Below, one piece after another: positions 14,882 through 38,032 of a stretch of DNA of 64,000 nucleotides (position 1 is the stretch's first letter; each line of letters begins with the position of its first letter). This DNA comes from Umbilicaria muhlenbergii. Taxonomy: Eukaryota; Ascomycota; Lecanoromycetes; Umbilicariales; Umbilicariaceae. The stretch lies in assembly GCA_000611775.1 (NCBI GenBank), contig KK106982.1:186001-250000 (forward strand), read 5' to 3'. The notes under the pieces were generated by a model that saw nothing but the letters and a program-made list of their open reading frames with translations, was not told where the DNA came from and ran no database searches. A program made the position numbers and the translations under genes.

Positions 14882-16136
14882 CGTGAAGACGACTCCGTCG
14901 TCCGAAGGCTGATTCTAACTCGGGCTCCTCACGCTCCTCACGCTCCGCGGGCTTGACGCTGTGTTTGCGAGAAAAGTGGCATTGTTTGCCTTGGCCTTCG
15001 TCAGCCCTGTTGGTACAGCTGTAGCTGCTGAGCTGTCAGCGGCATCGGCACGTCTTCCATGTAGGCGTTCGTCTGCGGCACAAGTGCGATCCTCGTAGCG
15101 CACGACATGTGGACGAAAGATGGATTCATGTGATGGAGGGAGGCAGTATAGGATGGGTGAAGAGGCCAAGTCAGTGAAGGCGCTGGTGTTGAGTTTGAGG
15201 CAGTCCCGCATGTGCGATGGCGTCTACTTTCTTAAGCTAGATACTTTCCACTTGGCCCTGTGGCACTGTGGCACTGTCGCCCTCTCGCCCTCTCGCCCTC
15301 TCCCCTGCTGAAGCGGGCAAGTCCCTCGGTCTAAAATGGCGGTGTGGGCCATGTGGCGCCCGGCTCCCACGGCTTTGATCGGTAGCCGTCCAGGCACTGG
15401 AACTTTCGTCGCTCGTACCACGTAAGCCGCAACGTCGCACCCTCACGGCCTCGCAACCTCACCCCTCAATAACCTCACATCAGGGCATTATCCCACTCCG
15501 TGGCCCCTTCAGCAGGACATCATCAACCAGAATGATACTCGAGCTATATCCTTCAGAGCTCTTGAAGCATTTTACTCTCTGGGCACTGTGTCTTCTCTTC
15601 AAGCCGTCGCTTTCGACGTTGCTTATCGTGGGGCTCCCGCAAGTGTCGACTGTGACCTCGACTAAAGTGAGCCCTGCCTACCTACGCTCGACATTCATGC
15701 AGCAGATCAGCATTCAATTAATGTGTGACTTCTTTTACCCGCAGTAGAGTGCTTCGTATTCTCCTCTTAGCTTTGTTTCGCTGGGAGAGGACACTCCTCC
15801 AAACGCTATTTACGTAACTTGCGGATTACCCAAACCTAAAGATTCGTACACGGCAGTGATCATCTCAATTCCAATACAATGCTCCCTCCAAGCGCATGTC
15901 CAACCTACTGCACTGGATATTAGTATTGTAGCTAGAATGTCCAAGTCGTCCTCTCTCGCAGGCAAAGTAGGTGGAGGACGTAGATCTTTGTGCCAGGAAA
16001 AAACTAGCACGCAATCCGGGTATCTAAAGGAAACATGACAAACGACAAATACACAGGCATTCTTGTTGTACCCGGGTCTCACCAACCATGACTGCTATGC
16101 GGGGATCTCTCCCCATTACGCATCAGCGTGGCTATC
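14882..16136. other. Intergenic region between LST4 and IML1
   Basis: About 1.25 kb holds the promoter of LST4 and the 3' end of IML1. A short tandem CGCCCTCT repeat lies at about 15278-15303, next to a doubled GTGGCACT at about 15261-15276. A minus-strand frame of 98 codons at 15211-14915 exists but has no family features, and a stop separates it from the LST4 frame. Confidence 0.5.
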
Positions 16137-19100: not shown

Positions 19101-21740
19101 CTGCGCCCGAATGCCCCGGCTCGACGCGGACGTTGGCTTTGCTTGCTCGGAAGACATCTCTGTACTTGCAAGAGCTTTTGGCGCCGGTGCACCGAAACCG
19201 CGGAGGCCAAAGCTGATCTGCCGTGATAGCTTTGCCGGCTTCACGAGGATCTTGGAGTTTGCAGAGGCAGTGCTAGTAGTGCTGACGATGCTGTCCTTCC
19301 GCTTGCTCACACCCCGGCCGGTGAGTCTGTCTTGCATTCTATGTTCAAAGTGCGCAGGTTCTGTTGAGTTTCGTGCAGGGCCTGATGGTAGATTCTGGAC
19401 GTTGTATGGTGAAGTACCGAGCATAGTAGTCTGCTTGCCTCGATTAGCTTGCGCTTGCGAAGCATGTCGTGCCGACTGTATTCGTCGAGATTGCTTGTCT
19501 AAGGCCTGACGTTGCCGAGGATCACGAAATAGTTTGTCATCGTAATCATCCATCCATTGCAAGGCGCCGCTGTCCAACCGTGATGTAGGGGCTTCGACCG
19601 TTCTCTCAGAGTACGATTGAGAACCATGCCGAGCATTGAGTCCTGTGTGGGTAGCGGCTAAGATCCCTTCGTTGTCCAAGCGTCTTGAGTGAGTTGAATT
19701 AAGGTTGTTAACGTTCGCTATAGAATCTTGCCCAAAGGTGGACTGTTGGTGTAAGTAGGGTATTGAAATGTTGCTCATCTCGTTCTCCATCATACCCATC
19801 ATCTGCACTGAATACATCCTGACTCTTGGCACAAATGTTTTGTGGCGCTTCACTGAGAGCTTTGACGTATTAAAGCCTTCTCTATTGGCAGAAGCATGTA
19901 ATCCTCTCTCTTCGGTGGCCGAAAGCCAGAACGAGACGTCTATCCAGTGTGGGATACCATACCTCCAATCACCTGGTGAGCCAGTTTTATCACTGGAATT
20001 TACCAGAGGTAGACTGCCCTCTGACCTAGAGAGGTTCGAAGACGAGAGATTGTGAACCCGACTGGAAAAGCTACCGAATGCAGCATCCTTCGCTTTAGGA
20101 GTGCTACCACCTGTTCCAACGGCGAAGATATTAACAGGTTCCGGCTGAGATCGTGGCGGTCTGTACTTGAACAAAGGAACCGAGTGCAACGGCATGGGCG
20201 CCAAACATACCAAGTCTATGCCAATGCCATTCTCGATCAGGATATCTGTAGTCGTGGTAAGCAGGTTGTAGTCTACCTCGAAAAGGCCGGTCCCTGGAGT
20301 AATAACCACTATCGATATCCCGGTCCTTACAAGGTCACGGTCGATATAGTCGTTGGAGAATTGCGACGAAGCAAGATTAATGGCTTCGAGGATATTGCCC
20401 CGCGTCGCTGAGGAAGGGTGTCCGGCAATCACACCCTTGGGGACGTCGACAGCCGTGGAGTCAGTCTCCACTTTAGTTGTTACGAAATCTCCAACGATAG
20501 GCTTGCGAATAAGGACATCCCTCAGAAAGACTTTGAACTCTCGTTTGAGTTGCTGTAAAATGGTTGACCATTGCCCGCTGGCCATGTCACTGACAACAAC
20601 CCGGTAAAAGTCTTTGTAAGGGGTGTTGTCTGCAGCAGTCTGCATGCTGGGATCCTCGACATCCACTGCGGGATGCACAAACCCAGATGCAATTTCCCTC
20701 TTATACTCTACTCTCGAGAAGAGTATGATGCTCACCAGATGGCGTGCTTTGATCTCTTGCCAACGCTTGAAAAGTTCCGGAAGGAAACCATTGATCACCT
20801 TGCTGAACATGATCTCTCCAGTTCCGTTAGTGTCAAAACCCCACATCTCCTTCGACATCTGTATGAAAAGAATGTAGCGGGCGGATTCACTCCGGAATAT
20901 GGGCTTTGTGGTAACGTTGAAGTACGCCGATCGAACTTTCTTTCCTCCGACATATATGGCATGCACTGTCGCCTTGATCGTACTCATGAAAAGCAGCTTC
21001 TGGCCCTTATAGACGGGCTTCTTGGCTAGCTCAGAACTGACCAGACGCCACATATCCGCACGCGTCAAATACTCGTCTCGAAAGGTGATTTCGACATGCG
21101 AAGCAGAGCATTTCGACTGGTCGATGGCGGAAACCATGACTTGAGCGCGGTTCTTGAAGCCAAATGCAGAAGCGATTGTAGAGGATATAGAGATTTGCAA
21201 GGTGGGATTTCTCGAGAGGAGCTCGGAACCCATCTCCTTGACTTTAAAAACATAGCGTATGCTTGCATCAGACTCGTTACCATTGGAGAAGGCGCTCTCT
21301 TCCTTCGCTGATACTTCCATGGAGTTGGTAGATGGCTCCTTCCCGTGGGTTTTCTCGCCGTCTTCTCCGCTACGGTGGCTCGCCTTGACGTCCTGCCCAG
21401 CATCGTGACGGTGCTCAAAGTCCTTACTAACAGTGTCTGAACTCTGAGGCACGACCTGAATCAAATCCCCAGCCTTCACAGTTCCCCGGGGAAAGAGAGC
21501 TAGGTTCAACAAGACGTCGTCCTTGGAAAAGTTATCATCATGGATCCACAGAGAGCACAGTCGCTCAACAGAAGACGTAGTCCCATTGGTGTCTTTGGAC
21601 CCCCCGGATTCAATTGCCTCGCCACTGATGTCCTTGTCCGTATGGCTATCATTGTTCAAGGAACTTCCAGTACTCATGTGGCGGAGGTGGGATGCCCGCA
21701 TCTGCCCGCGGGTTACACCCGGGGCTACGTTGGCCGACAT
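16137..21740 (-). CDS. iml1: IML1 / DEPDC5, SEACIT (GATOR1) subunit
   Basis: A single exon of 1,867 codons, within the range of fungal Iml1. Iml1 works with Npr2 and Npr3 on the vacuolar membrane as GTPase-activating complex for RagA/Gtr1, shutting TORC1 off when amino acids are scarce. Features include an N-terminal domain (LWIHDDNFSKDDVLLNLALF, about residues 64-83) and a central vWA-like fold (DLVRTGISIVVITPG ... GIGIDLVCLAPMPLHSVPLF, about 470-530). Disordered Ser/Arg-rich stretches follow. A DEP domain (HYNCFIGSDLTTWLLTNF ... ELMKEGLFQHV, about 1385-1440) and a conserved C-terminal domain (FNFVLDLEAAKDFPPHVEV ... GNFILLENKLY, about 1635-1695) complete it. Start and stop are both clear. 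Upstream neighbours run divergently. Identification rests on the DEP domain, the order of domains and the length. Confidence 0.93.
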   Translation of the reverse strand: MSANVAPGVTRGQMRASHLRHMSTGSSLNNDSHTDKDISGEAIESGGSKDTNGTTSSVERLCSLWIHDDNFSKDDVLLNLALFPRGTVKAGDLIQVVPQSSDTVSKDFEHRHDAGQDVKASHRSGEDGEKTHGKEPSTNSMEVSAKEESAFSNGNESDASIRYVFKVKEMGSELLSRNPTLQISISSTIASAFGFKNRAQVMVSAIDQSKCSASHVEITFRDEYLTRADMWRLVSSELAKKPVYKGQKLLFMSTIKATVHAIYVGGKKVRSAYFNVTTKPIFRSESARYILFIQMSKEMWGFDTNGTGEIMFSKVINGFLPELFKRWQEIKARHLVSIILFSRVEYKREIASGFVHPAVDVEDPSMQTAADNTPYKDFYRVVVSDMASGQWSTILQQLKREFKVFLRDVLIRKPIVGDFVTTKVETDSTAVDVPKGVIAGHPSSATRGNILEAINLASSQFSNDYIDRDLVRTGISIVVITPGTGLFEVDYNLLTTTTDILIENGIGIDLVCLAPMPLHSVPLFKYRPPRSQPEPVNIFAVGTGGSTPKAKDAAFGSFSSRVHNLSSSNLSRSEGSLPLVNSSDKTGSPGDWRYGIPHWIDVSFWLSATEERGLHASANREGFNTSKLSVKRHKTFVPRVRMYSVQMMGMMENEMSNISIPYLHQQSTFGQDSIANVNNLNSTHSRRLDNEGILAATHTGLNARHGSQSYSERTVEAPTSRLDSGALQWMDDYDDKLFRDPRQRQALDKQSRRIQSARHASQAQANRGKQTTMLGTSPYNVQNLPSGPARNSTEPAHFEHRMQDRLTGRGVSKRKDSIVSTTSTASANSKILVKPAKLSRQISFGLRGFGAPAPKALASTEMSSEQAKPTSASSRGIRAQPRTRVKEAGYPTQAKGGSSDYSGPRLEPPSPRGLGASRVSSVDAEKHPTRPIAIRNTTAIRVTGHPHQHSIKAELDTEEPTNEGQPHERLDVLQNASLRKQSGPKVDVADRFSAPKIPAALSPGSAMAPWLTVLNPSNPHKMDNDLASRLGRWQHVFPRRLRASTIKWKSLCSPASVPLTTEQFPTADQLAAEYQESPYRIAVHEEEDLSEMPKPREWLVRELISFRLSHGFQIVVGPRLSQAMAQPASEVFDIFDDKYLSQDGTVIFLSRGSTIHQLSCVEDGEVEVKRYTRRPMASLDLEANEGRSLAYKPAIRTMLADAYDPRDMIITPQRDEYNWNVVDSFIAGHEEQQAGRFAEHLRFWRARFVLIPVDPPSSTRRPLQTVNEDNEEEIRLEGIRKLTQLWQRYRYIPPDERRFQAPMWTPKDTNPLDIIYQTRNPSSIIAAELDRLDSTLLAENDLSGRPVQLLPDTELYQRSNFNLASLAQTIQGDKGVRLMDRRWHWRLHYNCFIGSDLTTWLLTNFKDVDTREEAIDLGNELMKEGLFQHVERRHNFRDGNFFYQIASEYRAPRPESRGGWFGSSRRLDRAVPSTPASDHFGRDSARVSRSRSGSDNNEDSPRHGPSVPAGSKQQLGVALSKSLRYDVDHRKRSYRPEVINLHYDRLHNPDNCYHIQIDWMNVTSKLIEDAIVSWATSAERFGLRLVEVPIGEASTINGIHPFRAPYLVKLAHHPPSRQPQDDSIVSSFTPRPRADDHYYQKALMKKFNFVLDLEAAKDFPPHVEVTYSWGRPDYQYPQYIHRSGVVLAQITDEGNFILLENKLYNNRSAAAKDSGKGENDETHDRGAGGHRFHPAGRGTVSPFEGSPQLTPFSSPLVRASPDSLGTGSVRPGLAPAFITPETERIKNELEAFCHSSETLKKFYEEVLSTAMSPASASPLMESSIPTLGLPPSLNLREASLSPSPASSKTRADSGATQHSPLVHALDA

Positions 21741-23473
21741 GGAACAGCATTGATACGCATCTCTTTTTCGACATTCACTACGAGCGTTTCAACATGGCTA
21801 CCTTATCAGGAACGAGAGAGGTTCATTGTGCCTTGCTTCCGGGGAGAAGGTTGCGGTCTTTCGGGCGACACCGTGGCAGGGGTGAAACTGCAGCAAAGTT
21901 AGCGAGGGGAGCTAACGGCTCCGGTAAAGCAGCTGCTCAGGAGGCGGACTGTTGCCCTTACGTATTTCCACATTTATTACTCGGACCAATTTTATTCTAC
22001 TTATTCTTATTTTCCGAATCTCAGCTGCGGAGTACAAGATGCCTAGCGGTGGGTCATCAGTTGTCATCCGTGATTACTCCGAGTAAGCCCTGCTTCTAGT
22101 GGCAAAACTCGAACCTGGTGGACGGCAGGACTAGAGAGGCGAGCCCACGGCAATGTCTAGGCATAAATCGTAGGGAGTCATTGTGGCTCCCCAAAAGTGT
22201 TCGAATATAATGCTCCGCATTATTTACGCGTTGTTGTTGATGTTCACGCTCATTGTTTAGGTATCTTTGTTTTGGTACCTTAGGACAAAGTCATCAAACA
22301 TGATTTTCGAAGGGCATGCGGGGATGCCATGATACCCAGTTCTGTTACCGTACTCCATAGGGATGGTCGGAAGGAGCTGCACGATGATGGCACGCTCAGC
22401 TTCCGTTGAAGCGCCCAGCGGACTGATGGCCTTGGCGAAATCCCGCCAGCGCAACTGGCCAGACTCACCAGGGAAAGATGGGCCTTGATCTTGATTTCAT
22501 TAGGGGCATCATCGATCATTCCCCCTTCGATGATGCGATGATGCGACAGCGAAGTGCCAAGTCAGACCAAGTGTCACCAAGTCATTTCCAAGTTGCTCGG
22601 CACTGGGTAACACGAGATTCTTATTTGCTCAAGCTCAGAGACCAAGCGGTAACACGCTTTGCCAATTGCCACGATCAATGCGCTCATTTCAACCCATCAC
22701 CACCACGGCTGGGGTAACAAAGCTCATCTGGAATGGGAAGCTTGTTTGCACATCCGCCACACCGCATATGTCGCAGCCCGCTGTGCACCTACCTTACTTG
22801 TAGAATAATTTGACCATTTCACACTTGACCACGACGAATTTGAAATTGTCGTCTGTTCGCACCTCTCCGTGAAGCCTTACTGCCTTGCCGCCTTGCCGCC
22901 TTGCCGCCTCGCCTCACTCGCCGCATCCATCATTGCGCTTTGCCCGTTAGAACGAGGAAACGTGTGGAGACGCCCCTGTTTACTGTGGCGCTTAGCGTGT
23001 GGCTAAGCCAGGGTGCGAGGGAGCAGCAAGTTGCAAGGGCAGGTCAAGTCGCTCAGTCCCAGTCTGCGCCTTTTGTGGACACTCCTACTTCTACTCCTTA
23101 TCACTCATCACTTATCCCGCAAGCCTTCGCACACCGTGGCAAAGGAACACTTGAAGCGATCAACCAAATTCACTCACTACGGGCCTAAAATAGCCTACAA
23201 GTCAGTGGCGCCTCGCGTAACAAGGCTGATTCATTCATTCGCTCCATTCCATTGGGCACCATACAAGGCTGCATCGCTCCAGGCAACAGCATTCCGGCAT
23301 TGACCCGATCTCACCATAGCTTTGGCCCCCAAACTTATCATCCTCATCGGCAGGTGAGTGTCCCTATATGTTCCATGGCCATGCAACTGACACTGGAGAT
23401 ACCAGATACGCACAAGCGCCACTTCGCTCACTTTCGAGACTTTCCCGTCGTACACTGACGTTGCGCTCCTGGC
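21741..23473. other. Divergent promoter region between IML1 and the Ca2+/H+ exchanger
   Basis: About 1.7 kb separates two divergently transcribed genes. I find no supported gene. A four-copy 8-bp repeat TTGCCGCC lies at about 22884-22910. Short overlapping open frames (for example 22901-23188 plus) lack family features. Confidence 0.5.
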
Positions 23474-25596
23474 ATGCGTAAGTCTCTGTCTAATGCGCCG
23501 TCTCCTGGGCTTCAGCAATCTGTCTATCTTAAAGCACATCCATATTCGCATATAGTAGAGCTCACATCTCCAATTTCAGATAGATGGAGATCTGCCGCTC
23601 GATCTGCCGCTTGGTGGGATGAAGAGGGCGATCCACCGAGCTACAATCCCTTTCGCAAGCTCAATCCACGCCGGAGACGTGGAGTCGATGATGAGGAGAC
23701 CGCTCGAAGCCATACAATCCAGTCGGAAAATGACGTTACGACGAGCATAGAGCAGAATCGAATAGATGAACACATCGCAGGACCTCGTCACCCAAACACT
23801 TTCCCGCCAAACCATACAAGCCTGGAAGGACAATCTCCGACATATCACCCCCAATATCCAGCTTCTGACATCAAGAACAATGAAAAGGAACACAGTGAAG
23901 CTTCTACTGCTGGTACGAGTGCCACTATTGTGGCGGATGGGATCCCTGACGCCCAGGGAGATCGTAATGGGGGCATGAAGCAGCGCAAGTCGGGCCTCTT
24001 GGCTAGGTTCCACAAGAAAGAGAAGAACCAGGACGACAAATCCAAGCGCACATCTGCATCAACGAAGAACGGAAAGAAGTCTAAATTTACCCCTGGTAAT
24101 CAGCTCAAGCGCACGCTGTTCAATTCATGGATCAATGTTCTTCTCATCATGGCTCCGGTGGGCATTGCCGTCAACTACGCACATGTCCAACCAGTAGCTG
24201 TCTTCGTCATCAACTTCATCGCTATAATACCATTGGCAGCGATGCTCAGTTATGCAACGGAGGAGATTGCCTTACGCACGGGAGAGACACTTGGTGGGCT
24301 GTTGAACGCAACATTCGGGTGAGTCTGTCTCTGCTAACCGTATAACTTCAGTCTATTGACGTCATGACAGTAACGCTGTGGAGCTCATTGTATCGGTATT
24401 GGCTTTGGTAAAGGACGAGGTTCTTATCGTGCAGACCTCCTTGATTGGCAGCATCCTCTCCAACCTACTTCTCGTCATGGGCATGTGCTTCTTCTTCGGT
24501 GGCATCAACCGACCCGAACAACATTTCAACATGGTAGTGGCGCAAACAGCTTCGAGTCTCCTTGCTCTTGCTGTTTCCAGCCTTATTATACCTACAGCCT
24601 TCAGTACCTGGGCCCAAGGTGATGGTAAGCTAGACTATACAGCTGCTTTCTAGTACTTTACAATTCCTTGCTAATTCCAGATCCAGCGACGAAGAACGCA
24701 TCAAATATTACGGCACTGTCACGCGGCACATCTGTGCTACTCTTGCTCGTTTACGGAGCCTATCTGTTCTTCCAGCTGAAAACCCACGCCGATATGTACA
24801 ACGAACCAAGCCAAAAAGTGGACAGGAGGGAAAAGAAGAAGAAGAAGATAGAAGGAGGCGAGGTAGAGGCGGGACTTGCAAATATTGGAGCCGGCATGTC
24901 CGGTACAACAGGTCCAGTGAGCGGTAAGAATGAGTCGGGCGGTCCAGAATCACCATTAAGAAAACCGAAGAAGGACGAAGAAGAGAAAGAGGAGCCACAG
25001 CTGCACATTTGGGTGGCAGTCGCCACCCTGGCCATATCAACAGCCCTAGTGGCCGTCTGCGCAGAATTTATGGTTGACAGCATCAACGCTATCACGGATC
25101 AAGGTGGTATCTCCAAGACCTTCGTCGGACTGATCCTCCTTCCCATCGTGGGCAACGCCGCCGAGCACGCCACCGCCGTCACTGTCGCCGTCAAGGACAA
25201 GATGGATTTGGCTATAGGAGTCGCAGTCGGCTCCTCGATGCAGATAGCCCTCCTTGTCATTCCGTTCGTTGTTGTGCTGGGATGGATCCTGGGCAATGAT
25301 ACCATGAATCTTGCCTTTGATGGATTCCAGATCGCCATACTGTTCGTGTCTGTTCTGCTCGTGAATTACCTTATTCAAGATGGCAAATCACACTGGTAAG
25401 TGTTTCTGAGCTATATGTCCCTTCTGTCCCGGAAGTTGTACTAACGACTTCTCTACTCTAGGCTCGAGGGTATACTATTGCAGACTCTCTATATAATCAT
25501 TGCTATAGCTGCTTGGTACGCGCTCTATCCTATTATAATAACAAAGCAACGCTAATTAATTGTAGGTTTTACCCTGCAGTTGGCGAAGTCGCATAA
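23474..25596 (+). CDS. Ca2+/H+ (cation/proton) exchanger, CAX/VCX1 family
   Basis: A membrane antiporter that loads Ca2+ into the vacuole in exchange for protons. Proposed exons are 23474-24318, 24371-24624, 24681-25395, 25462-25515 and 25566-25596, giving 632 residues. The N-terminal ~200 residues are hydrophilic and basic. Two homologous membrane halves follow. The first exchanger motif is [28 protein letters not shown]-like, with the helix split by the first listed intron; the second is [19 protein letters not shown]. The acidic, lysine-rich cytosolic loop between the halves holds KKKKK and EEEKEE runs. The GNAVE and GNAAEH cores are the cation-binding signatures of the family. A 102-nt stretch at the start (23478-23579) looks like an in-frame optional intron, which would remove 34 residues. 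Paralogues exist in most moulds, so the exact gene name is left open. Confidence 0.92.
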
Positions 25597-27480
25597 GCCA
25601 ACACTCAAGCTTCTGCTATATGGCGCGTCCCAAATGACAAACAGGACGACCCTGCCAACACTCCCTCAGCGGCAAGCCATGATGGATGATGGCTATGAGG
25701 AAAGTGAACAATTAACACACACGTGTCCTCGCTCGCGGGAAGAACCAGGGAAATGCAGGAGCTCAGTGGCTCAGAGAGCTGCCAATTAACCCAGCAGTGC
25801 TGGACCATAGTGTTCGCGTCCGAGGACAAGTATTGACTTCTCACAGCTTGCGCACGAAGCCTACGAATATTTCTCAAGGATTTTGCATTTTCCCCGAATA
25901 TGTTTTCCTAGTACTCTTTAATCTCCAACTCTTCAGGCGTTCGGCGGCGGCCTTCTATCGCGTTTTTCGCGGAAGAGAGGGCTTTGAAGCAATTCGATAC
26001 CCGAACCTCGAGCATCTTCGGATTGTACAATACTGTCGCTTTCTTACTTAGCCATTTCCGGTACGGGTCTTAGAGCGGTGCGAGTTAGAGTTATGGCGCG
26101 AGAAAATGGGAGAGTTATTACCATGTTCAGTCCGCGTGATATCGCCGACAATATTGATAATTATACCTCTAAACGTATCCGCTTGTGTTTTGGTAAGTAT
26201 CCAGTGCTCCACCACAGAGGGCGCGACCAGCATGAATACTGACAATGCACGGGAGCACTCCAGATTCGTCTTCTTTCCTGTCGACTGCGCCCACAGTGCC
26301 TGAGACCCAAGGCTCCCATATCAACCCTCCGGCGTCCAAGGCACTAGCGACACCTTTTCGCTCCGCTCCCCGGATGAGGATTCGAAAGCTACCCACGCTC
26401 CCCTTGCACTGTCTTCGAGCCAGGACCCGAGGCGGACGTTTAGGATGGGAGATGCCTAGTCCAGCTAGCCTAGGCCTAGCGCATCTTCGACCCGTCACCG
26501 TGGTGACTCCATTGGTATCTCGAACGGTCCTGTTGCCGACGAAAGGTCTCGGACAGGCCGGTGGGGGTTTGGGTGCCGCCTAATGGTACCCAGACCGGAG
26601 TGGATGCCAGATTTTCCTTTACCGCACCGAGCGGTGGGATGAGTGGATGAGTTGCTGGCGGAACGCACGTGCCGGGTGGGTGGAGGTCGGTCTTTAGTTG
26701 GCGTAGTTCAATTGGTGGAGGGGCCCCCCCGGGGAGAGGGGGTGGGGGTGGGTTGGTAAGGTAGGTAGGCTTGGGGATCGAGATTGCGCGTGAGGTGCGT
26801 GTGCCGTTCGGACTAGGGATTTGCGGGATGGTTGGGGGATGTTCCTGGGAGTGGAGGTGTGGGAGAGGAGATAGATGGTAAGGTTGGAACGAGCGGTCTG
26901 GGTTGGGGGGGATATGTGATCTTGGGGGGTTCCCTTAGGCTGTTGGCTTGTTGTCTGAGCTACTGGCTTCCACTTTGGCCCTGTCCGGCGAGTATCGCTG
27001 GATGAAGATGACGAGAGGTCTTGATCACAATCGAGCAGGCTTACTGACATCTCGTTCCCTCAACTTGCGACGAGTCACTTCCCCACTACGAAGCCTTTGC
27101 CTAAGCTCTCTGCATCTGGTCGAGCCCCCTTGGCTGCCTTTGCACAGATAATTTACCAGCACGGTAGACCATCTGCGACGTGTCTGCCCATCTTCTTCAC
27201 GTCCCCATCGAGTTCATTTCTGTGCGTTGGTGCAGACTTACTTGCATCGTGTATCGTTGAAGCTATCAAGCTACTCTGATATCTCCCTTTGATATCAATT
27301 CTGTTTTATCGTGTGCTCTGTTCCCCTTTGGAAAGCAAGGGCTCATGTTTGTCCCGCAGACACGACAAGAACTCATTTCCACCTGAATTCCCCACTCTTC
27401 TCCTGGAACTTCAGCAACCTGGTGCAGGTCAACTCCGCAGAGATATGAGGGGCTCAGTTCCTCCTTACTCTGTTGATCCC
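25597..27480. other. Gene-free stretch
   Basis: About 1.9 kb follows the exchanger. Overlapping open frames on both strands around 26169-26583 cover each other and have no family features. The 26640-26940 part is strikingly G-rich on the plus strand, with runs of five to seven G or C. No RNA gene was recognised. Confidence 0.45.
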
Positions 27481-27489
27481 GCGAAGCTG

Positions 27490-28099
27490 CAAAACAATTA
27501 AGGTACGAAACATCTTCCTACATCAACAATATCTCTGCATCGCCGATGTATTTCTATTTCAACATCTTCCATCATCTACAACATTTCCCCTCTTTACAAC
27601 ATCTCCCTCCTATCTCCCTCCATCTGCATCTCCCTCCACCAACTAAATCACTCTATGTCATCAATTTCTTTCTACATCCACCAAATTTCCATACATCAAC
27701 AGCATCTTTGTACTTTCAACATGACCCTTCATCAACATCTCCCTCCATCAACATCTCCTTCCATCGACATCTCCTTCCATCAACGTCTTCTTCCATCAAC
27801 ATCCCTTCCTTCAATACCATCTCCCTTCTAACCTTGCCTTACTTGTCCGTCAATACCGTGGAGCGATCACCTTACTTAACATAGACATCATCAGAGAGCT
27901 GACTGCCTGTCATACGGCTTAATTCGCTCTCAATTTGGATTTTAGTCACAGAGGATCAACAACTTCCCCGCAAATCTTCTTCTCTTGTAATGCTTCCTCC
28001 TTTTTGATTGGAGCACATGACAGCACGTTCATCCGACCTTACCTCAATCTGATCTGCGCCACATAATCATACGGTTTCTCGGAATGTTCCCGTCTTGCA
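27490..28099. repeat. Pyrimidine-rich low-complexity stretch with CATCAACATCTCC-like repeats
   Basis: From about 27500 to 27870 the plus strand is built of diverged short motifs such as CATCAACATCTCC and CCATCTCCCTCC, with few G. It begins just after an exon-end-like AAG followed by GTACG at 27490. No reliable protein is encoded. Confidence 0.55.
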
Positions 28100-29625
28100 C
28101 ACTGAGGACATGTTCTCTCTAGGTGCAGCAAAGGGCAGTTCATAAGTGTAAGCATTCCTCCATATGAATTCTTGCCATACAACATCTACTTTTCCTAGGA
28201 CTGTCTTTGTCCGCAAATATGTATTTCCACATTACGATAGCATGTATCTCGTACGTCAAGGCTTTCCTCGATTTGATACGTGCTGGAAAGCCATACATGT
28301 TTTTGCCAAGTCCTCGTTTCGCTCACTAAAGACATCCTCTTCTGCAACAAATCCCAAGTGTAGGTACTTCTCCATCTTCACGCTTTCCATTCAAAGTCCA
28401 CAACTCCCCGAAGCCTATTTGGGTTTTAAAGACCTGCTTTCCATCATATCAGCATACAGCTCGCACATACTAGCTTTTTTCATTCTGATACTCATCGCGA
28501 AGTCATACATATCATTCTCAAGTCTTCGTTAAGCTCACTGAGGACATATCCTTATGCAACAGCGGGCAACTTTCAAATATAAGCACTCTTCCACCTTCAC
28601 TCTTCTCCTGTCGTCTACAACTCCCTAAGACGTGTTTGCGTTTTCAACGCCTGCGTTCTATCATAACAGCACACATCTCACACATCCAGGCTTCTCTCAT
28701 TCGCTCACTGTGGACGTAGTCTTCTGCAACAGTAGGCAACTTCTAAGCGTAAGCACTTTTCCATCTTCACTCGTCTCACACAACCTCCGCAGATCCCTGA
28801 GACCTATTTAGGTTTTGAAAGATCTACATTCCCTCAAACCTACATACCTCTCCCACGTGCAGGCGTTTCTCCACTAGTACTTGGTACAACCACACTTGTT
28901 ATTTTCAAGTCTTCTTCCTTCTTCCTTCTCTCTTCTTCGTTTTGCCCTCTAAAGACGTGCTCTCTTCAGCCGCAACAACGGACGGACTATAAGTGTAAGG
29001 CACTTCTCCATCATCATTCTTCCCTTACAACGTCTACAATTGTTGCGACCATGTCCGGGGGCTTTGAAAAACCTGCGTTCTTATCACAACAGCACATAAT
29101 ACATACGTCCACGCATTTCTCAATTTGATACTCACTATGAATCGTACATGTTCGTTCCGAGTCTACATTTTGCTAACTAACGACATGTTCTCCTCAGATG
29201 CAACAGCGGGCGACCTGTAACTGTAAGTACTTCTCAATCCCGATTCTGGCTGAACAAAGTCTACGAGCCCTGGGACCTATCCTAAGTCCTTCGAGAAGCC
29301 TGCATCCTTATCACAGCAGCACACAACCTGTCATCGAAGTGTTTCTCAATTTGATTCCCATCACACCCAGTACATGTTCTTTCAAGTCTATGTTTCGCTC
29401 CTACTAACATGCTCGCTTCAGGTGCAATAGCGGGCGACCCGTAACTGTAAGTACTTCCCATTCTCCATTCTGGCGATACAAAGTCTACCTCCCTGGAGTC
29501 TTTTCTAAGTCTTCGAAAAACTTGCGTTCTCATCACAACAGTACACAAAATATAGGCCTGCGCCTTTCTCAATTGGAAATTCACCATGACTGTCATACAA
29601 CTTCATGGAAAGCCTCTAACGCTAT
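28100..29625 (+). repeat. Seven-unit tandem array with repeated micro-exon-like modules
   Basis: Diverged units begin near 28100, 28324, 28536, 28706, 28948, 29175 and 29400, with periods of about 170-242 bp, mostly near 225. Each starts like CACTGAGGACATG, then a pyrimidine tract, then TGCAACAGCGGGC, a donor-like site and a ~190-bp tail containing AACAGCACACA. In units 1, 5, 6 and 7 an AG is followed by exactly 25 nt and then GTAAG: 28123-28147, 28970-28994, 29198-29222 and 29422-29446. Units 3 and 4 keep the 25-nt core but have lost the AG, and unit 3 has also lost the donor. Unit 2 has a shortened core. Because 25 is not a multiple of three and the frames hold stops, coding is unlikely. 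Further decayed units may extend to about 30200. The arrangement suggests repeated micro-exons of a spliced non-coding RNA or a duplicated intron segment. Confidence 0.7.
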
Positions 29626-32600
29626 AGCGCTTCCCAGGTCATACTCTCTGTCTTCCCAGAACCTAGCCTCCATCTTCCCGGAACACAATCTCTATTTAAA
29701 GCAGCGGATAGCTATGACCAAGCTGTTCTAGATCTGGGTTCTTGCCTCAAGAATCCTACCATTTTCGGTAATTTTTTATCTCAAATCACCCAACACCTGC
29801 TTCGAAACTGCAGCAACAGTTTGTATACACGGTCAAACCTTCTAAAGCTGACACTCATCATAGAGTCGTACTATTCTTGGAAAGTCCTTGCCTTGCTCAT
29901 TCAAGGTACGCATTCTAGTCGCAGCAACAGACAGCTCATACATCTGAGCTTTCTCGACTTTTGTTCTGCCCTAGGAAATTTACAACTTCCTAGCACATTG
30001 TCACGGTCACTAAACACCTACGTCCCAATTGCAGCCAAAGACAATCAGTAAGATTCGTTTAAGCTAATCTCAACCTGAATCTTGTCGTATGAATTCCACA
30101 TCTTCCTGACTTTTTTGCCCGGACATCGGAGACCTGATTTCTATTTGCAACGCTGGGCACTCCAAGGACTGGTTTGAACGCTCTCCGAAGTACGTCTTTA
30201 TTCTGCTTATAGCAAACACGCAACCAGCTTCTAAATCAACCCGCTCAACTCCCATCTACCTCGAGGTATTACTTCCGGTACGTCTGGGGTGAGTATTTAC
30301 TGTCTCGGTAAGTTGTTTCTTTTTACGCCATCTCTTGTTGATCCTTTACATCAATCGGTGCCACATTCAATCCGCCGTCCACTCCTTCGCATTGATCTCT
30401 CGACGCTCCTGTTCTGCTCTGGACATAGTTGGATCACACTTCTCACCCTTTGCTACTAAAAATTGTCGCTCAGGTACGTCCATCAAGGGTACGCTGCGCT
30501 CTGAAGCTGTTGCACCTGTATATCGCCCTTTGGCCGTCCGCTCTACGCTGTTACACTCTATGCCAGAGACACTCGATTTATCCAGCCTCGCAATCGATTG
30601 TCCTACCGCTTTCAACTCTGCTTATTTCCCATCCTCGTTTGAGATCGGTCCATCTTTCTCAGCGCAAGTTAATCGTTCATCCCACCACTTGCTCTAGAGA
30701 CATCTCCTTTACACTCATCTCCACTACCTACCCTCTCCACGCTTCTCCTCCGCAGTTTTCCTCCCACATCCCTGCATACATCTCCTCCGATTTCTCCTCC
30801 AACCCCTCTTGTAAGTTCTCCTTGGCTCTTTATCTCTACACTATTCCAGCGTGCACTCCTAACCTAAGATTCCTCTTTTCACTTCTGCCCCGCGCTTCTT
30901 CTCTGCTCCGTTTCGGTATTCCGTTGCTGCACTTTGTCCTTGCAATCTCAAACTACACTACCCTTTCCACATATCCTCTACGTATCCACACTACACTACT
31001 ACCCGACACTACTCTACTATACCACATTCTTACTCCTTCCGTACACTATTCTTATGCACTACCTCGCTCCATGCCTACTCTATTCTAAACTGCTAACATA
31101 CATGTCTACCACACACATACCTTCTACACTACCCCATCACACATCTACCCTACATCTCTTCTTGTGTTGCGTTTTTACACCTCTACCCTGTACTTCATTT
31201 CTACCCTTTACTATCCCTCATTCCTACACAGCTGTGCTATCATCTAGACATACACAGATTGTAGTTCTTACTCTTTGCTACTAGTTTTGGTGCGACGAGA
31301 ACGTCCGCAACGATTCAGCATCTTTGGAAGCTGCCTCGTTCCTTTCCATCAGTAACTTGTCGACAGGTAAGCAGCTCTATCTACATCTATTTTTGCACCT
31401 CCAAAAACCCGAGTCGTTACTCTCACTCTTCACCATCACACTTTCAACCCACAACTGATTCAGCGAAAACTCTAATGCTGTTGCGATCGTTTCCTTCTCC
31501 TTAATCGCCGTAAAGGTACTATTAAAACACCTTACATTTGGAGGTTGAGACTTGCACTTAGGACATACTCAAGTCGTCCTTATTCTCGTTCTTCTTCCTA
31601 TTCTTCTCCCACTTCTTCTTTCTCTCTTCCTCTAGCTCTACCTCTACCTCTTCCTCTACCTCTTCCTCTTCCTCTTCCTCTACCTTTTCCTCTACCCCTT
31701 ACTGTACGTCTTCCTCTACCTCTCTCTTCACGTTTTCCTGTATGTCTTCCTCTACCTCTTTCTCTACCTCTTCCAATTCTTTTAACTCTTGCTCCACCTC
31801 ATCTTCTACCTCTACGTCTTTCTCTTCCTCTTCCCTCGCCTCTCCTTCTCTTCCTCTTCTTCTTCCTCTATTTTTTTTCTCCTTCACCACTTGACCATCC
31901 ACTACAAGCTTTAACCTTGCACTCAGCATATACTTGATGACCTGACTTAGGCCTTAATGACGTACTTGGTAGACCAAAAAAAATTTAGTGAGGATGCACC
32001 GTCGCCTTTAGTACTCACCTCAAACCACCGTCGATCTCTCATATCCAAGAATCCCAAACTTGTCTTTCACAACCACAGACTCTTCTGCAGGTAAGTCTAG
32101 AGAGGCCCTACCTACCATCAAATTTACTTTCTTACTCAATTCCACCTCTCATATTCCCGTAATATTTCTGCAAATACTTGCCCTTTACTTCACTCTGCAC
32201 TACAGCGCACTACAACGTCTATCCGGCTGCATAGCAATAAATTTGAACAGTCTCCGACTTTCCTCAAACTCTCTACCTCGAATCTGCTTCCTTTCGATAC
32301 TTCGCCTCTTGCTTTCAGTATGCACCTCTGCATCGTCTTGCTCTGTGCTTTAAATTATACCGACTCCAAACGTTCTTGATTTTCCCCACTGCACCTATCC
32401 TAAACTTTGCTCCTGTAGCTTTTCAGATTACCATGTATCTCGCCAACTCTCATTGCACAGCGACTACTCTGTAGCAACTCGCTCTTCTAGCGCTGTGTAT
32501 CCATAGCAAGCTCTTCTCACCTCGCCGATGGTTACGTGAAGATCCCCTTAGGGGCCGTTAACCAGTCTGAACACTAATTGTGTTGTACTAGGCCCATCAG

Positions 32601-32794
32601 ACCAGTGCGGGATTCTCAGGGTTAGTCTAGACGCTCCCTGGCAACCGCCAGCGTTCTGAATAGTTCTGAATAAGGTTTCAACGCTCAGAGCCACCGTACT
32701 CGTCTCCAGCAAAGCAGTCTTGCGGCATACGTCTACATACCACCAAGGAGACCTCCCTTGTCTCTATTATCACGCAGTCAACTCATTAACAGCT
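29626..32794 (+). other. Pyrimidine-rich region upstream of the SNF2/RING gene, no protein gene
   Basis: About 3.2 kb has a plus strand rich in C and T. Apparent exon ends, that is AG abutting a strong donor, occur at about 29904 (AAG/GTACGC), 30473 (CAG/GTACGT), 31366 (CAG/GTAAGC) and 32090 (CAG/GTAAGT). One plausible exon is 30431-30473, between an ATAG acceptor and the donor at 30474. Open frames here (for example 30429-31088 and 31545-31937) are low-complexity and rich in Leu, Ser, Thr and Pro, as expected from pyrimidine-rich DNA. The block may be transcribed as a spliced non-coding RNA or as a leader of the downstream gene, but nothing proves it. Confidence 0.45.
31585..31885 (+). repeat. 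Long polypyrimidine tract (CTTCCTCTAC-type repeats)
   Basis: About 300 bases are almost entirely C and T on the plus strand, with scattered A and very few G, built from CTTCCTCTACCT-like units. Long mirror-like pyrimidine tracts of this kind can form triplex DNA in other systems. Here that is only a possibility. Confidence 0.75.
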
Positions 32795-35700
32795 ATGGAT
32801 TACGAAGACGATCCAGTACTTGGAGGATCCCCAGAAGACGTCCACGACGACATGGATTTCGAGGAAATCCTTAGTCGTACCCAAACATCACAATCACAGA
32901 GGGTCCTCCTGCTACCAGATATGAACTTCGACCCAAACTTGCCCCCAACCAATCCCGACTCAACAGATCTATTGACCGCAGCAAATAGCATGAACTCAAC
33001 TCAATCTCAGGTTGAGTCAAGCAGCGAAAATACTGGTATGGGCGGTAGTTCTGAAAAGCAACCCTTGCCAGGCTTGGGAGCCGTTCCGCAGAGTCCGAGA
33101 TCAGAGAGCTCATCTCAAGGACCGACTCCGACTCAGCGCTCCCATGAGTCAAGCTCGACACGCAACTCAATATCAGTCGATGTCGAAGGCGCAACCAGTC
33201 CCCAGATCGATGGTTCAGGGGCCCCCCAGCATACAATTCTGGCCAACGACGATGACGATATTGTCATTTTGGAAGAGCGTTCCTCGCCAGCCATTAAGAA
33301 GGAGGTAACGGATGATAACTCAGGCCATGCCTCCAAGTATGCTGGAATGGAACCCATCGTAATTAGCGACACCGACACCGACATGGATGAACCGGGGGCG
33401 CCTCAGGGAACCACGTCTCATGATGGAGCACACCCCACACTTGCAGCCAGCGGTGTCGACCTTGGGACGAGGGCTTTCTTACGCACCCCAAATGCCAAAA
33501 GCAAACGCACTCCTGCGCAAATTGCGAGGATGTTAGAGGCCCAAAAGCGACTTGTGCAGCAAGCCACCGGGAAGAAGGTCACTGGTAAGGCCAGTAGCAT
33601 ATTCAAAGGGTTGCAAGAAGCAGCAGGACAGTCGACCGCGGGGCCCTCCGTCAGTACATCGGTGACCGCCAATAACAGGTCTCAGACTACAGAGGAAGAC
33701 GAACACGCTTGGATGAACAGCGGTGCCCCGGAATCCGATGATGAGGACGCTGCTGCGGCTACGTGAATCTCCTACTCAAAGGCTAGAAGCTATATCCACT
33801 GACAATGGAACCAGGTTCGCGCGATTAAAGAAACGGTACCATCAGAAGAGGACGGAGGGCAAGAACAACTGGCAGGATGATGTCAACTTCTTAAAAGCTG
33901 ACACTGCGGAGAACGCTCGACTCAAGAGGATTCAGAGTCAACGTATACAAGCAGGCTCCAGGTACGTGGGGTACCTTTTCATCCCTATGGTTTTATAAAC
34001 ACGTGTCTGACTTTAGCAGTGACGACGTGCTTCTAGCTTTCAACGATAATGAGGAACTCTTCATGAGGCAAGCGGACCCAGGTTCATCAACCCAGAAACG
34101 TCCCCATCCCACGGCCACCGCAAACAGCAACGAATGCGGCGAATGCGGCGACTATACCAATGTCAATGAGTATGGCCTCTATCTTCGATGTAGGGAAACT
34201 GTCTTGCGACTGATGATGCAATTTCTAGATCTGGTTCAGGTGATGACAGATATCGCAGCGGCTATCAATCGAATAAGAGGACCTGTGCCAGCAGCACTGA
34301 TGAAGCATTCAACCAAAGCTTGGCTGTTGGTATTGAAGCAGAACTTGCCCGAGATAAGAAGAAAGGAAAGGCCCGGAAGAAGAAGGCTGGCACAACCAGT
34401 GGCAAGACGCCAGGAGATAAGAGCAAGGCCAAAACACCCAGGAAGTCCACGGCAAAAGCTCCGAAGCGTTCCAAAAAGCCAGACCTACTGAAGAATGCGA
34501 ATAGTCTGGTGTCAAGCAATGTCTTTGTTGATACGAGCCACGACAGAGCAGCACTACCGTCTGTAACTGCAACTACTAAGCCTGGAGCCCTGAATGCATT
34601 GCTTGCGTCGGTACCCCTGGAAGACCAAAGTACTGCAAAAAGCGACAAGCAACACGTCTTGAAGGCTACCCGAGTTTTGGGCAACCGCAAGTGCTTGGCA
34701 GATGGCAAAGGAGGTTGGAAGCTGAGAGGCATGATATCTTCCTTAAGACATCATCAGGTGTTGGGAGCGGCGTGGATGTTGGAAAGGGAGACGGCGGTAG
34801 ATGGATCCAACGGTGGCTTATGCGCGGATGAGATGGGGTTCGGTAAGACACTGCAGGTGCTAGCAACCATGATCGCTCATCCTCCGCCCCCGGGTGAAAC
34901 TCGCAAGACGACCCTAATCGTGGCAACTCCGGCGCTAGTATCACAGTGGATGGACGAAATAGAGACCCACGTCGAGGAAAATGCCTTGGGGATAGTTGTC
35001 AGGTACCACGCGAGTTCCAGGGTTTCGGGCACCAATGCCATTCTATTGCTCCAACAAGCTTCCGTTATCTTAACGACTTACGGGGAGGTCCTCAAATCAT
35101 ATCCAAAGTACAATCCACCGGTTGAGATCCTTTCCTTCGAAAAGAAGAAGGAGTGGTGGCAAGCGTACTACAAGAAGAATAGGGGACCATTGCATCAAAT
35201 ACCGTTCTGGCGGGTGGTACTAGATGAAGCCCAGGCTATCAAGAATCGTGACAGCCAGACATCGATCGCCTGCCGTGGACTAACAGCAGTCAATCGTTGG
35301 GCCCTGTCCGGGACACCTGTGCAAAACAATGTTCTGGAGCTCTTCCCAGTATGTCATAGTGGTACCCTTACTCTGAGCGATTCGAGGAATACACTGACCT
35401 CTTTACAGTACCTCAAGTTTCTTCATGTAAAGCATGTTGGGTCCTTCGAAGTCTTCAAAGAGAACTTCTGTGATCCCAATAACGAGGCTTCAAACGAGCG
35501 GCTCCACGCCTTCCTGCGTCAAGTACTCATAAGGCGCACGCACGATGACCAACTTTTTGGCGCTCCGTTGATCTCCTTGCCTAAGTGCAGTGAACAGACC
35601 ATCGTTGTGGAGTTCAACGAGATTGAGAGAGCTGTATATGAGGTAATTCGCAATAGGTACATCCGGCGCATCAACTCGTAAGTGAACTCCACCTCCCTAC

Positions 35701-37104
35701 GTATCTGCGTTCCTACTAAGCACACAACAGATATCAGCGAGACGGGATGCTGCGGAAGCGGTATAGCAACGTGCTGGGTATGTTAACAGTTCTTCGGTGT
35801 CTAACAGCCCACCTATTCCTTACTCAATCGACGATAGAAGAGCTCTTTGAATTGGAAGACGTTGAGCGCTTGTTCCAGGCCACCATTGGCGAGACAGATA
35901 GCATCAAGATCCAAAACCGGAACATGCTTATGCAGATGCGAAAGCTTATCACGGAGAAGAACAAGCCTCCGGAGTCTGCTCAGACGTCTCAAGATGGAGA
36001 GGCTTCTGCAGTCGCAGATACTGAAGACGAGGGCCCAATCAGTCAGAGTCAGCCTCTCATCTTCAAATTCCGTCGCTATCTCCGGGATTTGAGAGCGAAT
36101 TCCCACTGGTCCGAACTAGAAGCTCGCAGCTTGTGTCACCGGTGTACAGATTTGCCTACCGACCCTTATGTCACTTCGTGCATGCACGTCTACTGCAAGG
36201 AATGTCTCATCGCCATGTCATACGTTGCGTCGTTGAATGGCAACGACCGCACAAGTTGCATCGCCTGCGGCAACATCTATACCGAATCCAGACCCTGCGA
36301 AGGTCTTAAAGAACTTGAGGCAGGGGACCCCACCACTCAATCACCCCAACCGGAGATTACCCCAAGAGCTCGTCGTCTCGGCAAAGATCCGGAGCAAGCA
36401 ATGAAGTGGATTGACTTTGAAGGTCAAGTGTTGCCATCCGCGAAGACCGCGGCGCTAGTGGCCCAGGCCGAGTTATGGTTTGCGGAGGAGCCGAAGACCA
36501 AGATTGTCATCTTCAGCCAGTTCCAGATGATGATAAGAATTATCGCCCGTGTATGTCAGCAGCGCGGTTGGGACTACTGCACCTATCACGGCAAGATGAC
36601 GCACGGAGCGCGCGAGCAAGCTATCCGTGACTTCAAGAATATAGCGAGCAAGCGGATCCTTATCATGAGCTTGAAAGCAGGAGGTATCGGGCTCAATCTG
36701 ACCATGGCGAGCCGCGTTATCTGCATCGATCTTTGGTGGAATAGGAGTGTCGAGCAACAAGGTACGAAGCCCGACTTTCAGAAACTAATAACTCCTGCTA
36801 ATATAGCCCAGCATTCTGCCGCATCTTCCGCATCGGACAGGAGTCCGAGACCCGCATCACGAGGTTCGTAGTCAAGAACACAGTCGACGAAAAGTTGCAG
36901 ACGATGCAGGAAGACAAGGAAGTCGCCATCGGGAAGGCTATGGACCAGACTCCGAGCAAATTAAGTCTAACGGACCTTATGCGGCTGTTTGGACCGGTGC
37001 ACGAGGATGCTGATCGCAAAGCCTTCATTATCGTCGACGACGATGATGAGTTTGATGCGGAGGTTCCTCGTGTCGAGACTAATGACCTACCGATGGTCCA
37101 ATAA
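32795..37104 (+). CDS. SNF2-family ATPase with RING finger, Uls1/Ris1 type
   Basis: A nuclear DNA translocase with a ubiquitin-ligase RING inserted in the helicase core. Exons are 32795-33762, 33815-33961, 34017-34189, 34240-35348, 35409-35677, 35731-36761 and 36812-37104, giving 1,329 residues. The N-terminus is acidic and disordered and carries two likely SUMO-interacting motifs, DDIVILEE (about residue 155) and PIVISDTDTD (about 187). The helicase has Walker A DEMGFGKT (about 625), the DEAQ box LDEAQAIKN (about 757), the motif LSGTPVQNN, a RING (CHRC ... CMHVYCKEC ... CIAC, about 1023-1070) and C-terminal motifs FSQFQMM, SLKAGGIGLNLT and IFRIGQ. RING plus SUMO motifs fits Uls1; Rad5 is less likely because no HIRAN domain is seen. 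Most introns are 50-60 nt. The fourth (35349-35408) is 60 nt, in frame and without a stop. The fifth exon phase and the intron at 34190-34239 are inferred. Confidence 0.88.
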
Positions 37105-37835
37105 GTGGCTGGAATTGCGCAGCACTTCTTGACATGGAGGTCTTTTCAACTATCTAAGCGTCTCACTTGCACGAAGAAAATCCCAAGCACATACCCTCAG
37201 CACCTCGGCGAATCCCCCCACCCAGCCCCGTTTGATTTTCACTCTCCCAATCTGCCCCTATGTTTACTCGTGCTTGGTTCACATATGCTAAATACACACA
37301 GCATGTCCGCATTGTTCCTTAGCAGCTAACAGTCGACGTGCTCTTTATTCATTGGAGCAACCACTCAGGGGACCCTTAGCGGTATACTTGGCAAATAGCA
37401 TTTCAAGTTGGAATTTCAAAATCTAAACTCTGTGATTATAATCAACATCAATACTAGTTATAACACTTAACCATAAACTAGACAGTGCATCTAGTGCATA
37501 CGGGGGGCGCCTCCGGTATGGTGAGGGCGGGATAGATATGGGTCCATACCCCTAGGGCTTAGGGCATGCAATCACGACCTTTCCTATATTTCCTTAACGC
37601 GACACTATGATGCGAGGAACAAGATAGCAGTGGCCTTGTCCTCAATTAACACTAAGTTTTGAATATACTCTACATAGCAGATATATAGTCAAAGCGAATG
37701 GCAGCAGCAACAGGGGGGTTCCCCGCCTACCAAAGCACTGGCATTAGGCCTTAAGGACACGATTTCCGCGAATTTCTAGGAGTCATTGAGCGCTATAACC
37801 GGCAGATTTTAAGTTCTACATATAGCGCAGTCTGT
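37105..37835. other. Gene-free AT-richer stretch
   Basis: About 730 bases follow the SNF2/RING gene. No gene is supported. Around 37495-37565 is a GC-rich patch with GGGGGGCGCC and several short palindromes (for example TATGGGTCCATA). It could be part of a decayed element, but I recognise no family. Confidence 0.4.
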
Positions 37836-38032
37836 TGTTGATATAGTGCTGGAGGTCGCCTGGATCCCTTCAGAGCTGGTACTTATTTGGACCCGACGTG
37901 GGCCGTGTTGACACGGCATAAGTAGCCGTCCGCTGTTGATATAGTGCTTGGGGTCGCCTGGATCCCCTACGAACTGCCACTTGTTTTGACCCGGCGGAAG
38001 GCGTGTCTAGACAGTATAAGTGGCAGTCCTCA
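37836..38032. repeat. Two abutting ~98-bp direct repeats with internal inverted repeats
   Basis: Copies start at 37836 and 37934. Each opens with TGTTGATATAGTGCT, then GGTCGCCTGGATCCC. Each contains an inner inverted pair: TACTTAT with ATAAGTA in copy 1, and TGCCACTT with AAGTGGCA in copy 2. Sequence between the conserved blocks is diverged. They may be ends of a decayed mobile element. No coding sequence accompanies them. Confidence 0.6.

What the first reader, a model, noticed from the sequence alone, without database searches (positions are those of the whole stretch)
28100..29625. Tandem array of micro-exon-like modules
Seven diverged ~225-bp units share a core TGCAACAGCGGGC. In four units the core sits between an AG and a GTAAG donor exactly 25 nt apart (28123-28147, 28970-28994, 29198-29222, 29422-29446). 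Constant spacing amid otherwise diverged sequence suggests selection on a splicing unit. Because 25 is not a multiple of three, a repeated non-coding micro-exon or a duplicated intron with ratchet-like sites fits better than a protein. I know of no described fungal system of this kind.
Basis: partly seen in the sequence, partly recalled or inferred. Interest (0 to 1): 0.7.

Follow-up and report, generated by a model that had tools for sequence, protein, structure and literature searches.

The report
Decaying tandem repeat with splice-like sites
Upstream of a fungal helicase gene, a stretch of about 225 bases was copied in tandem long ago; some copies still carry a 25-base piece bordered by splice-like signals, which might be spliced as tiny non-coding exons, but the copies can also be explained as ordinary, slowly decaying duplicated DNA.

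Summary
Seven units at 28062-29582 (each E<=3e-45) share 51-69% pairwise identity, a faded unit follows at 29864-30026 (E 1.2e-7), and searches of the 34.8-Mb genome hit only this locus. AG-25 nt-GTAAG occurs at the four stated places. It is not in all seven: u2-u4 lack a 5-bp stretch holding the AG, and u2 and u3 lack an exact GTAAG. The constant spacing follows from common descent and does not itself show selection: the 25-nt interior ranks only 63rd of 201 windows for conservation. GTAAG, however, is among the best-kept 5-mers. The last units (u5-u7) have the fullest set of signals, with possible introns of 191-203 nt.
The array lies in a 5.5-kb, pyrimidine-rich stretch, apparently non-coding, directly upstream of a SNF2/RING helicase gene. 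There, donor-like GTA[AC]G is 5-fold enriched on the gene's strand (18 vs 3.5 expected), while branch-point-like CTNAC is depleted (31 vs 51).
Best reading: an old tandem duplication inside a long, probably transcribed and spliced leader, decayed in u2-u4 and past u7, intact in u5-u7. Whether the micro-exons are used cannot be decided without RNA, and no relatives were available to test conservation.

The parts
27300..32780 (+). pyrimidine-rich, apparently non-coding leader between the exchanger gene and the helicase gene, donor-rich and branch-point-poor
   Evidence: GC skew -0.28 to -0.54 per kb; GTA[AC]G 18 vs 3.46 expected, CTNAC 31 vs 51.2; its two segments are the longest of 48 pyrimidine-rich segments in 264 kb; 9 of the 14 open runs of 90+ codons there (listed) were scanned, no Pfam match
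28062..28278 (+). unit u1: AG 28121-28122, 25-nt span 28123-28147, GTAAGC at 28148
28286..28493 (+). unit u2: acceptor stretch missing, 7-nt gap in the core, donor GTAGGT
28498..28700 (+). unit u3: exact core, acceptor stretch missing, donor place reads ATAAGC
28693..28882 (+). unit u4: acceptor stretch missing, donor GTAAGC at 28749
28921..29133 (+). unit u5: CAG ending 28969, 25-nt span 28970-28994, GTAAGG at 28995
29139..29358 (+). unit u6: CTAAC at 29173 and 29177, CAG ending 29197, 25-nt span 29198-29222, GTAAGT at 29223
29371..29582 (+). unit u7: CTAAC at 29404, CAG ending 29421, 25-nt span 29422-29446, GTAAGT at 29447
29616..29637 (+). CTAAC...CAG acceptor-like site after u7 (possible intron 29447-29637)
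   Evidence: last base read from the sequence (one search used an end one base short)
29864..30026 (+). faded further unit: TAG near the acceptor place, donor lost
   Evidence: E 1.2e-7; E 2.2e-4 with the core model over the window
30029..30142 (+). doubtful further unit: GTAAG at 30048, acceptor lost
   Evidence: E 0.17; E 8.5e-4 for 29999-30100 with the core model over the window
32795..37104 (+). SNF2/RING helicase gene downstream; first intron 33763-33814; end from the open frame to 37101
   Evidence: PF00176 E 2.4e-48, PF00271 E 2.1e-16, zf-C3HC4 E 2.8e-4 just over its cut-off and other RING models below theirs; reading across the first intron is open; open frames

Best explanation
A stretch of about 225 bp of a long, probably transcribed and spliced, non-coding 5' leader was duplicated in tandem at one locus, long ago. 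The stretch held a 3' splice-like site (pyrimidine tract, AG) 25 nt upstream of a 5' splice-like site (GTAAG). In tandem, every donor then faces the next unit's acceptor, so each unit becomes a possible 25-nt exon plus a ~200-nt intron. Some units (u2-u4 and those past 29640) have lost sites; u5, u6 and u7 keep them and probably yield optional 5'-leader exons, or at least functional donors, ahead of the helicase gene. Shown: duplication, sequence decay, location, the signals and the donor enrichment. Inferred: transcription, splicing and any effect on the helicase mRNA.
For: Seven units, found at one locus only (200 kb of other stretches). GTAAG is among the best-kept 5-mers. Possible introns u5->u6 (203 nt), u6->u7 (199 nt) and u7->29637 (191 nt) carry CTAAC 18-22 nt from the intron end (last end corrected). 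In 24 introns picked from this genome the motif is CTAAC in 9, CTGAC in 7, weaker in 5 and absent in 3, with 5th-95th percentile of distance 13-40; those introns were chosen partly for such motifs. Donor-like motifs are enriched on the gene strand outside the array too: GTA[AC]G 8 vs 1.93, P 0.001, in 2481 bp without array and microsatellites. The 46 other pyrimidine-rich segments give 33 vs 20.3. ATG is mildly depleted there (12 vs 21.2, P 0.019; whole leader 38 vs 46.1, P 0.08), as transcribed leaders tend to show (recalled).
Against: No RNA data and no relatives. Acceptor gone in 3 of 7 units. CTAAC only in u6 and u7; u1 and u5 have weaker CTGAG and CTAAA there. Acceptor-like CTRAC...YAG is not enriched in the leader: 5 vs 4.7 overall, 1 vs 3.5 outside 28061-29620, and 3 vs 1.2 (P 0.1) inside it, two of the three being overlapping sites of u6. 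The AG..GTAAG span ranks 2 of 194 for conservation, but its AG columns rest on four units; the six-base donor ranks 9 of 220. With order-2 expectation GTAAG outside array and microsatellites is 4 vs 0.9, rank 4 of 1024, and GTACG 4 vs 1.65, rank 49.
Confidence: 0.45

Rival explanations
1. Neutral: an old tandem duplication of intergenic DNA that happened to hold AG and GTAAG; retention in four units is inheritance and chance, with no splicing.
For: Spacing is inherited; the 25-nt interior is not specially kept (rank 63 of 201); acceptor lost in 3 of 7, donor GTAAG inexact in 2 of 7; TGCAA and TCTAC are kept exactly in as many units as GTAAG; the six-base donor ranks 9 of 220.
Against: GTAAG ranks 1 of 201 five-column windows; u6 and u7 have CTAAC at slightly different aligned places, both at usable distance; the donor enrichment reaches beyond the array.
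Confidence: 0.3
2. Cluster of alternative first exons or U1-binding donors: many start sites in the leader, each followed by a donor, all joined to one far acceptor near the helicase start. Array donors are used, the 25-nt units are not internal exons.
For: Donor-rich, acceptor-poor leader: GTA[AC]G 18 vs 3.46; CTNAC 31 vs 51.2; CTRAC...YAG outside 28061-29620 1 vs 3.5, and AGGTRNG donors there 5 vs 0.27 expected, one of the five (29906) lying in the faded unit.
Against: u6, u7 and 29637 do have good acceptors; no start-site data. The reversed control CANTC is also low over the whole leader (41 vs 55.3, P 0.018), though not outside the repeats (20 vs 21.2).
Confidence: 0.2
3. Array of protein-binding DNA or RNA sites (core TGCAACAGCGGGC), with splice likeness incidental.
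For: GCAACA is the best-kept six-column block (0.90).
Against: The core is exact in only 2 of 7 units; no conserved fold (3 pairs, -0.81 kcal/mol); no Rfam match at gathering score.
Confidence: 0.05

Closest known systems
Intron gain by tandem genomic duplication
   Same: A tandem copy of DNA with splice-like sites sets a donor against the next acceptor, so the copy can be removed as an intron (how it works is recalled; PMC8469720, passage seen, names it as the one proposed mechanism demonstrated in vivo)
   Different: Here apparently non-coding, many copies in series, and 25 nt between acceptor and donor that could remain as exon; use not shown
Fungal micro-exon of Xlr2 in Trichoderma virens (PMC11121469, passages seen)
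   Same: Very short exon (20 nt there, 25 nt here), not a multiple of three, in a filamentous fungus
   Different: Coding, a single micro-exon, RNA-supported and conserved in Trichoderma; here no sign of coding, repeated and unproven
Introner-like elements of fungi (PMC4457414, abstract seen)
   Same: Related intron-like sequences in many copies that degenerate with time
   Different: Those multiplied into various genes; these were found at one locus only, in tandem
Stwintrons of Hypoxylaceae (PMC8469720, passages seen)
   Same: Repeated intron-like fungal sequences
   Different: Nested introns spread over genes, with terminal inverted repeats; that nesting was not seen here, though not searched for systematically

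Membership tests
Micro-exon | exon of about 30 nt or less between AG and GT | tested here: met
   25 nt in 4 of 7 units, as sequence only
Micro-exon | inclusion seen in RNA | not testable with these tools
Introner-like element | similar copies in many genes of the genome | tested here: not met
   whole-array and one-unit searches of the own genome hit this locus only (the search scores only its best candidates); a unit profile over 200 kb of other stretches had no hit better than E 0.9
Recursive (ratchet) splice site | AG and GT directly abut (recalled) | tested here: not met
   25 nt apart in all four units that have both
Stwintron | one intron interrupting a splice signal of another | not tested
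   not searched systematically
Tandem genomic duplication intron gain | tandem copies that carry both splice signals | tested here: met
   4 of 7 units
Tandem genomic duplication intron gain | the copy is removed from the RNA | not testable with these tools

The most novel reading that the evidence does not exclude
A series of tandem non-coding 25-nt exons with ~200-nt introns in a gene leader, used as a counting or tuning device: splicing or skipping of u5-u7 changes the leader in 25-nt steps (a frame change for upstream reading frames; the u6 exon opens with ATG), and so tunes translation of a SNF2/RING helicase.
Probability: 0.07. Interest if true: 0.7.

Novelty: new variant of a known kind. 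Interest (0 to 1): 0.33.

Why it matters
If u5-u7 are spliced, this would be a natural case of tandem duplication creating a row of introns and micro-exons in one leader, with intact, half-lost and lost copies side by side: a graded series for testing which losses switch a splice site off. The donor-rich, branch-point-poor leader would also be a test case for long spliced 5' leaders in fungi.

Tried and rejected
Protein-coding repeat: rejected; the six frames of 28060-29625 have 14-32 stops each, longest open run 130 codons, and unit lengths vary. Of the 14 open runs of 90 codons or more in the leader (helicase frame left out), I scanned 9; none matched Pfam at E 0.01. Structured RNA: no Rfam match in the window at gathering score, no tRNA, consensus fold of 3 pairs. 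Mobile element or dispersed intron: no second locus; the 16-base core with up to 2 mismatches gives 24 genome places, 12 per strand, 3 of them in the array, against 8 and 9 for the reversed control, so little beyond chance outside the array. The helicase's apparent frame break at about 33763 is a 52-nt intron with CTGAC (sequence, translation). The organism could not be named: the 5.8S search of the genome found nothing, which may be a limit of the search. The intron training set is small (24), partly chosen by splice motifs, and used only as a rough guide; the first version of the script found too few introns under a strict coding threshold and stopped with an error. In one search the script placed the acceptor AG wrongly (16 nt from the donor), so its 'observed 3' and its block rank of 22 of 175 do not concern the real site; one search put it right (4 of 7 units; block from 25 bases before AG to donor+8 ranks 5 of 166). 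Literature: the searches listed nothing on tandem non-coding micro-exons in fungi; this covers only an open-licence library and only the rows listed. Three papers were opened; all others were seen as search listing only.

Full report
What was checked. The window is bases 186001-250000 of contig 2 of a 34.79-Mb, 7-contig genome. It looks fungal by its genes: the IML1_N_fung Pfam model matches a neighbour at E 1.5e-14. The finding lies between a sodium/calcium-exchanger gene (PF01699 in the exon at 24629-25396) and a SNF2/RING helicase gene that starts at about 32795.

The array. A profile of the seven units finds each at E 2.7e-45 or better, one further faded unit at 29864-30026 (E 1.2e-7) and a doubtful one at 30029-30142 (E 0.17). 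The same profile over 200 kb of other stretches of the genome gives nothing better than E 0.9. Self-comparison, which does not depend on the profile, gives 61% identity over 1398 columns at one-unit offset. Whole-genome searches with the array and with one unit hit only this locus; these searches score only their best candidates. Pairwise identities are 51-69%, so the duplication is old (inference).

The splice-like sites. Per unit: u1 AG/GTAAGC; u2 no AG/GTAGGT; u3 no AG/ATAAGC; u4 no AG/GTAAGC; u5 AG/GTAAGG; u6 AG/GTAAGT; u7 AG/GTAAGT. u2-u4 share one 5-column gap that removes the AG, best read as a single event copied among neighbours (inference). CTAAC lies upstream of the acceptor only in u6 and u7, and before a further CAG ending at 29637. 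The three resulting introns would be 203, 199 and 191 nt (the last end corrected).

Is it selection? The claim from constant spacing fails as stated. Tandem copies inherit spacing, and the 25-nt interior is only 63rd of 201 windows in conservation. A weaker claim survives. GTAAG is first of 201 five-column windows (0.886 against a mean of 0.59; TGCAA is equal to two decimals), and AG+GTAAG in 4 of 7 units is a count reached by 3 of 194 pairs at that distance, itself included. Against it, the donor with its sixth base ranks only 9 of 220, and TGCAA and TCTAC are exact in as many units.

The surroundings say more than the array. From about 27.3 to 32.78 kb the + strand is pyrimidine-rich; its two segments (2950 and 2600 bp) are the longest of 48 such segments in 264 kb, the next being 1250 bp. 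No coding sign was found: 9 of its 14 open runs of 90 or more codons were scanned and none matched Pfam. Donor-like GTA[AC]G occurs 18 times against 3.46 expected from dinucleotide shuffles, and 8 against 1.93 when array and microsatellites are left out. The 46 other segments give 33 against 20.3. Under a stricter order-2 expectation GTAAG outside array and microsatellites is 4 against 0.9 (rank 4 of 1024 pentamers), GTACG is 4 against 1.65 (rank 49), and GGTAAG, GTAAGT and GGTACG rank 6, 9 and 11 of 4096 hexamers. Branch-point-like CTNAC is low: 31 against 51.2 in the whole leader, 15 against 25.3 outside the repeats (P 0.012), while the reversed control CANTC is 41 against 55.3 and 20 against 21.2. 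So the leader is donor-rich and acceptor-poor, as one would expect of a long spliced leader with many alternative donors or first exons (inference).

Mechanism. The best-supported account is tandem duplication of a piece of such a leader. Each copy sets a donor against the next copy's acceptor; some copies decay, u5-u7 are intact. Whether they are spliced is open; I put the whole account, with some use of these sites, at 0.45, neutral decay at 0.30, and a first-exon/donor cluster at 0.20.

Comparison. It resembles intron gain by tandem genomic duplication (named in PMC8469720, passage). It resembles the 20-nt Xlr2 micro-exon of Trichoderma virens (PMC11121469, passages) only in size and in being in a filamentous fungus. 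It is not an introner-like element by the test of dispersed copies, nor a ratchet site, since AG and GT are 25 nt apart.

Noticed in passing
27300-32780, + strand: Branch-point-like CTNAC is depleted (31 vs 51.2 expected) while donors are enriched; the reason is unknown.
   Followed up: partly
about 27000: Strand skew flips: GC skew +0.17 on + at 26.0-27.0 kb, -0.38 at 27.0-28.0 kb, which looks like a divergent promoter (inference).
   Followed up: no
27716-27814 and 31589-31870: Pyrimidine-rich minisatellites (units such as TCAACATCACCCTCCA and CTCTTCCTCTAC) on either side of the array in the same leader.
   Followed up: no
37827-38029: About two copies of a 98-bp tandem repeat (76% matches) downstream of the helicase gene, next to a lower-GC stretch at 38-42 kb (41-47% per kb).
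   Followed up: no
11072-21785, - strand: An FNIP_N protein and an IML1 protein are encoded close together; both families are linked to TORC1 nutrient control (the link is recalled).
   Followed up: no
L010, L013, L016, L017: Four of 20 sampled 10-kb stretches have 35-38% GC, one 42%, and the other 15 48-55%: AT-rich blocks, perhaps from repeat-induced mutation (inference).
   Followed up: no
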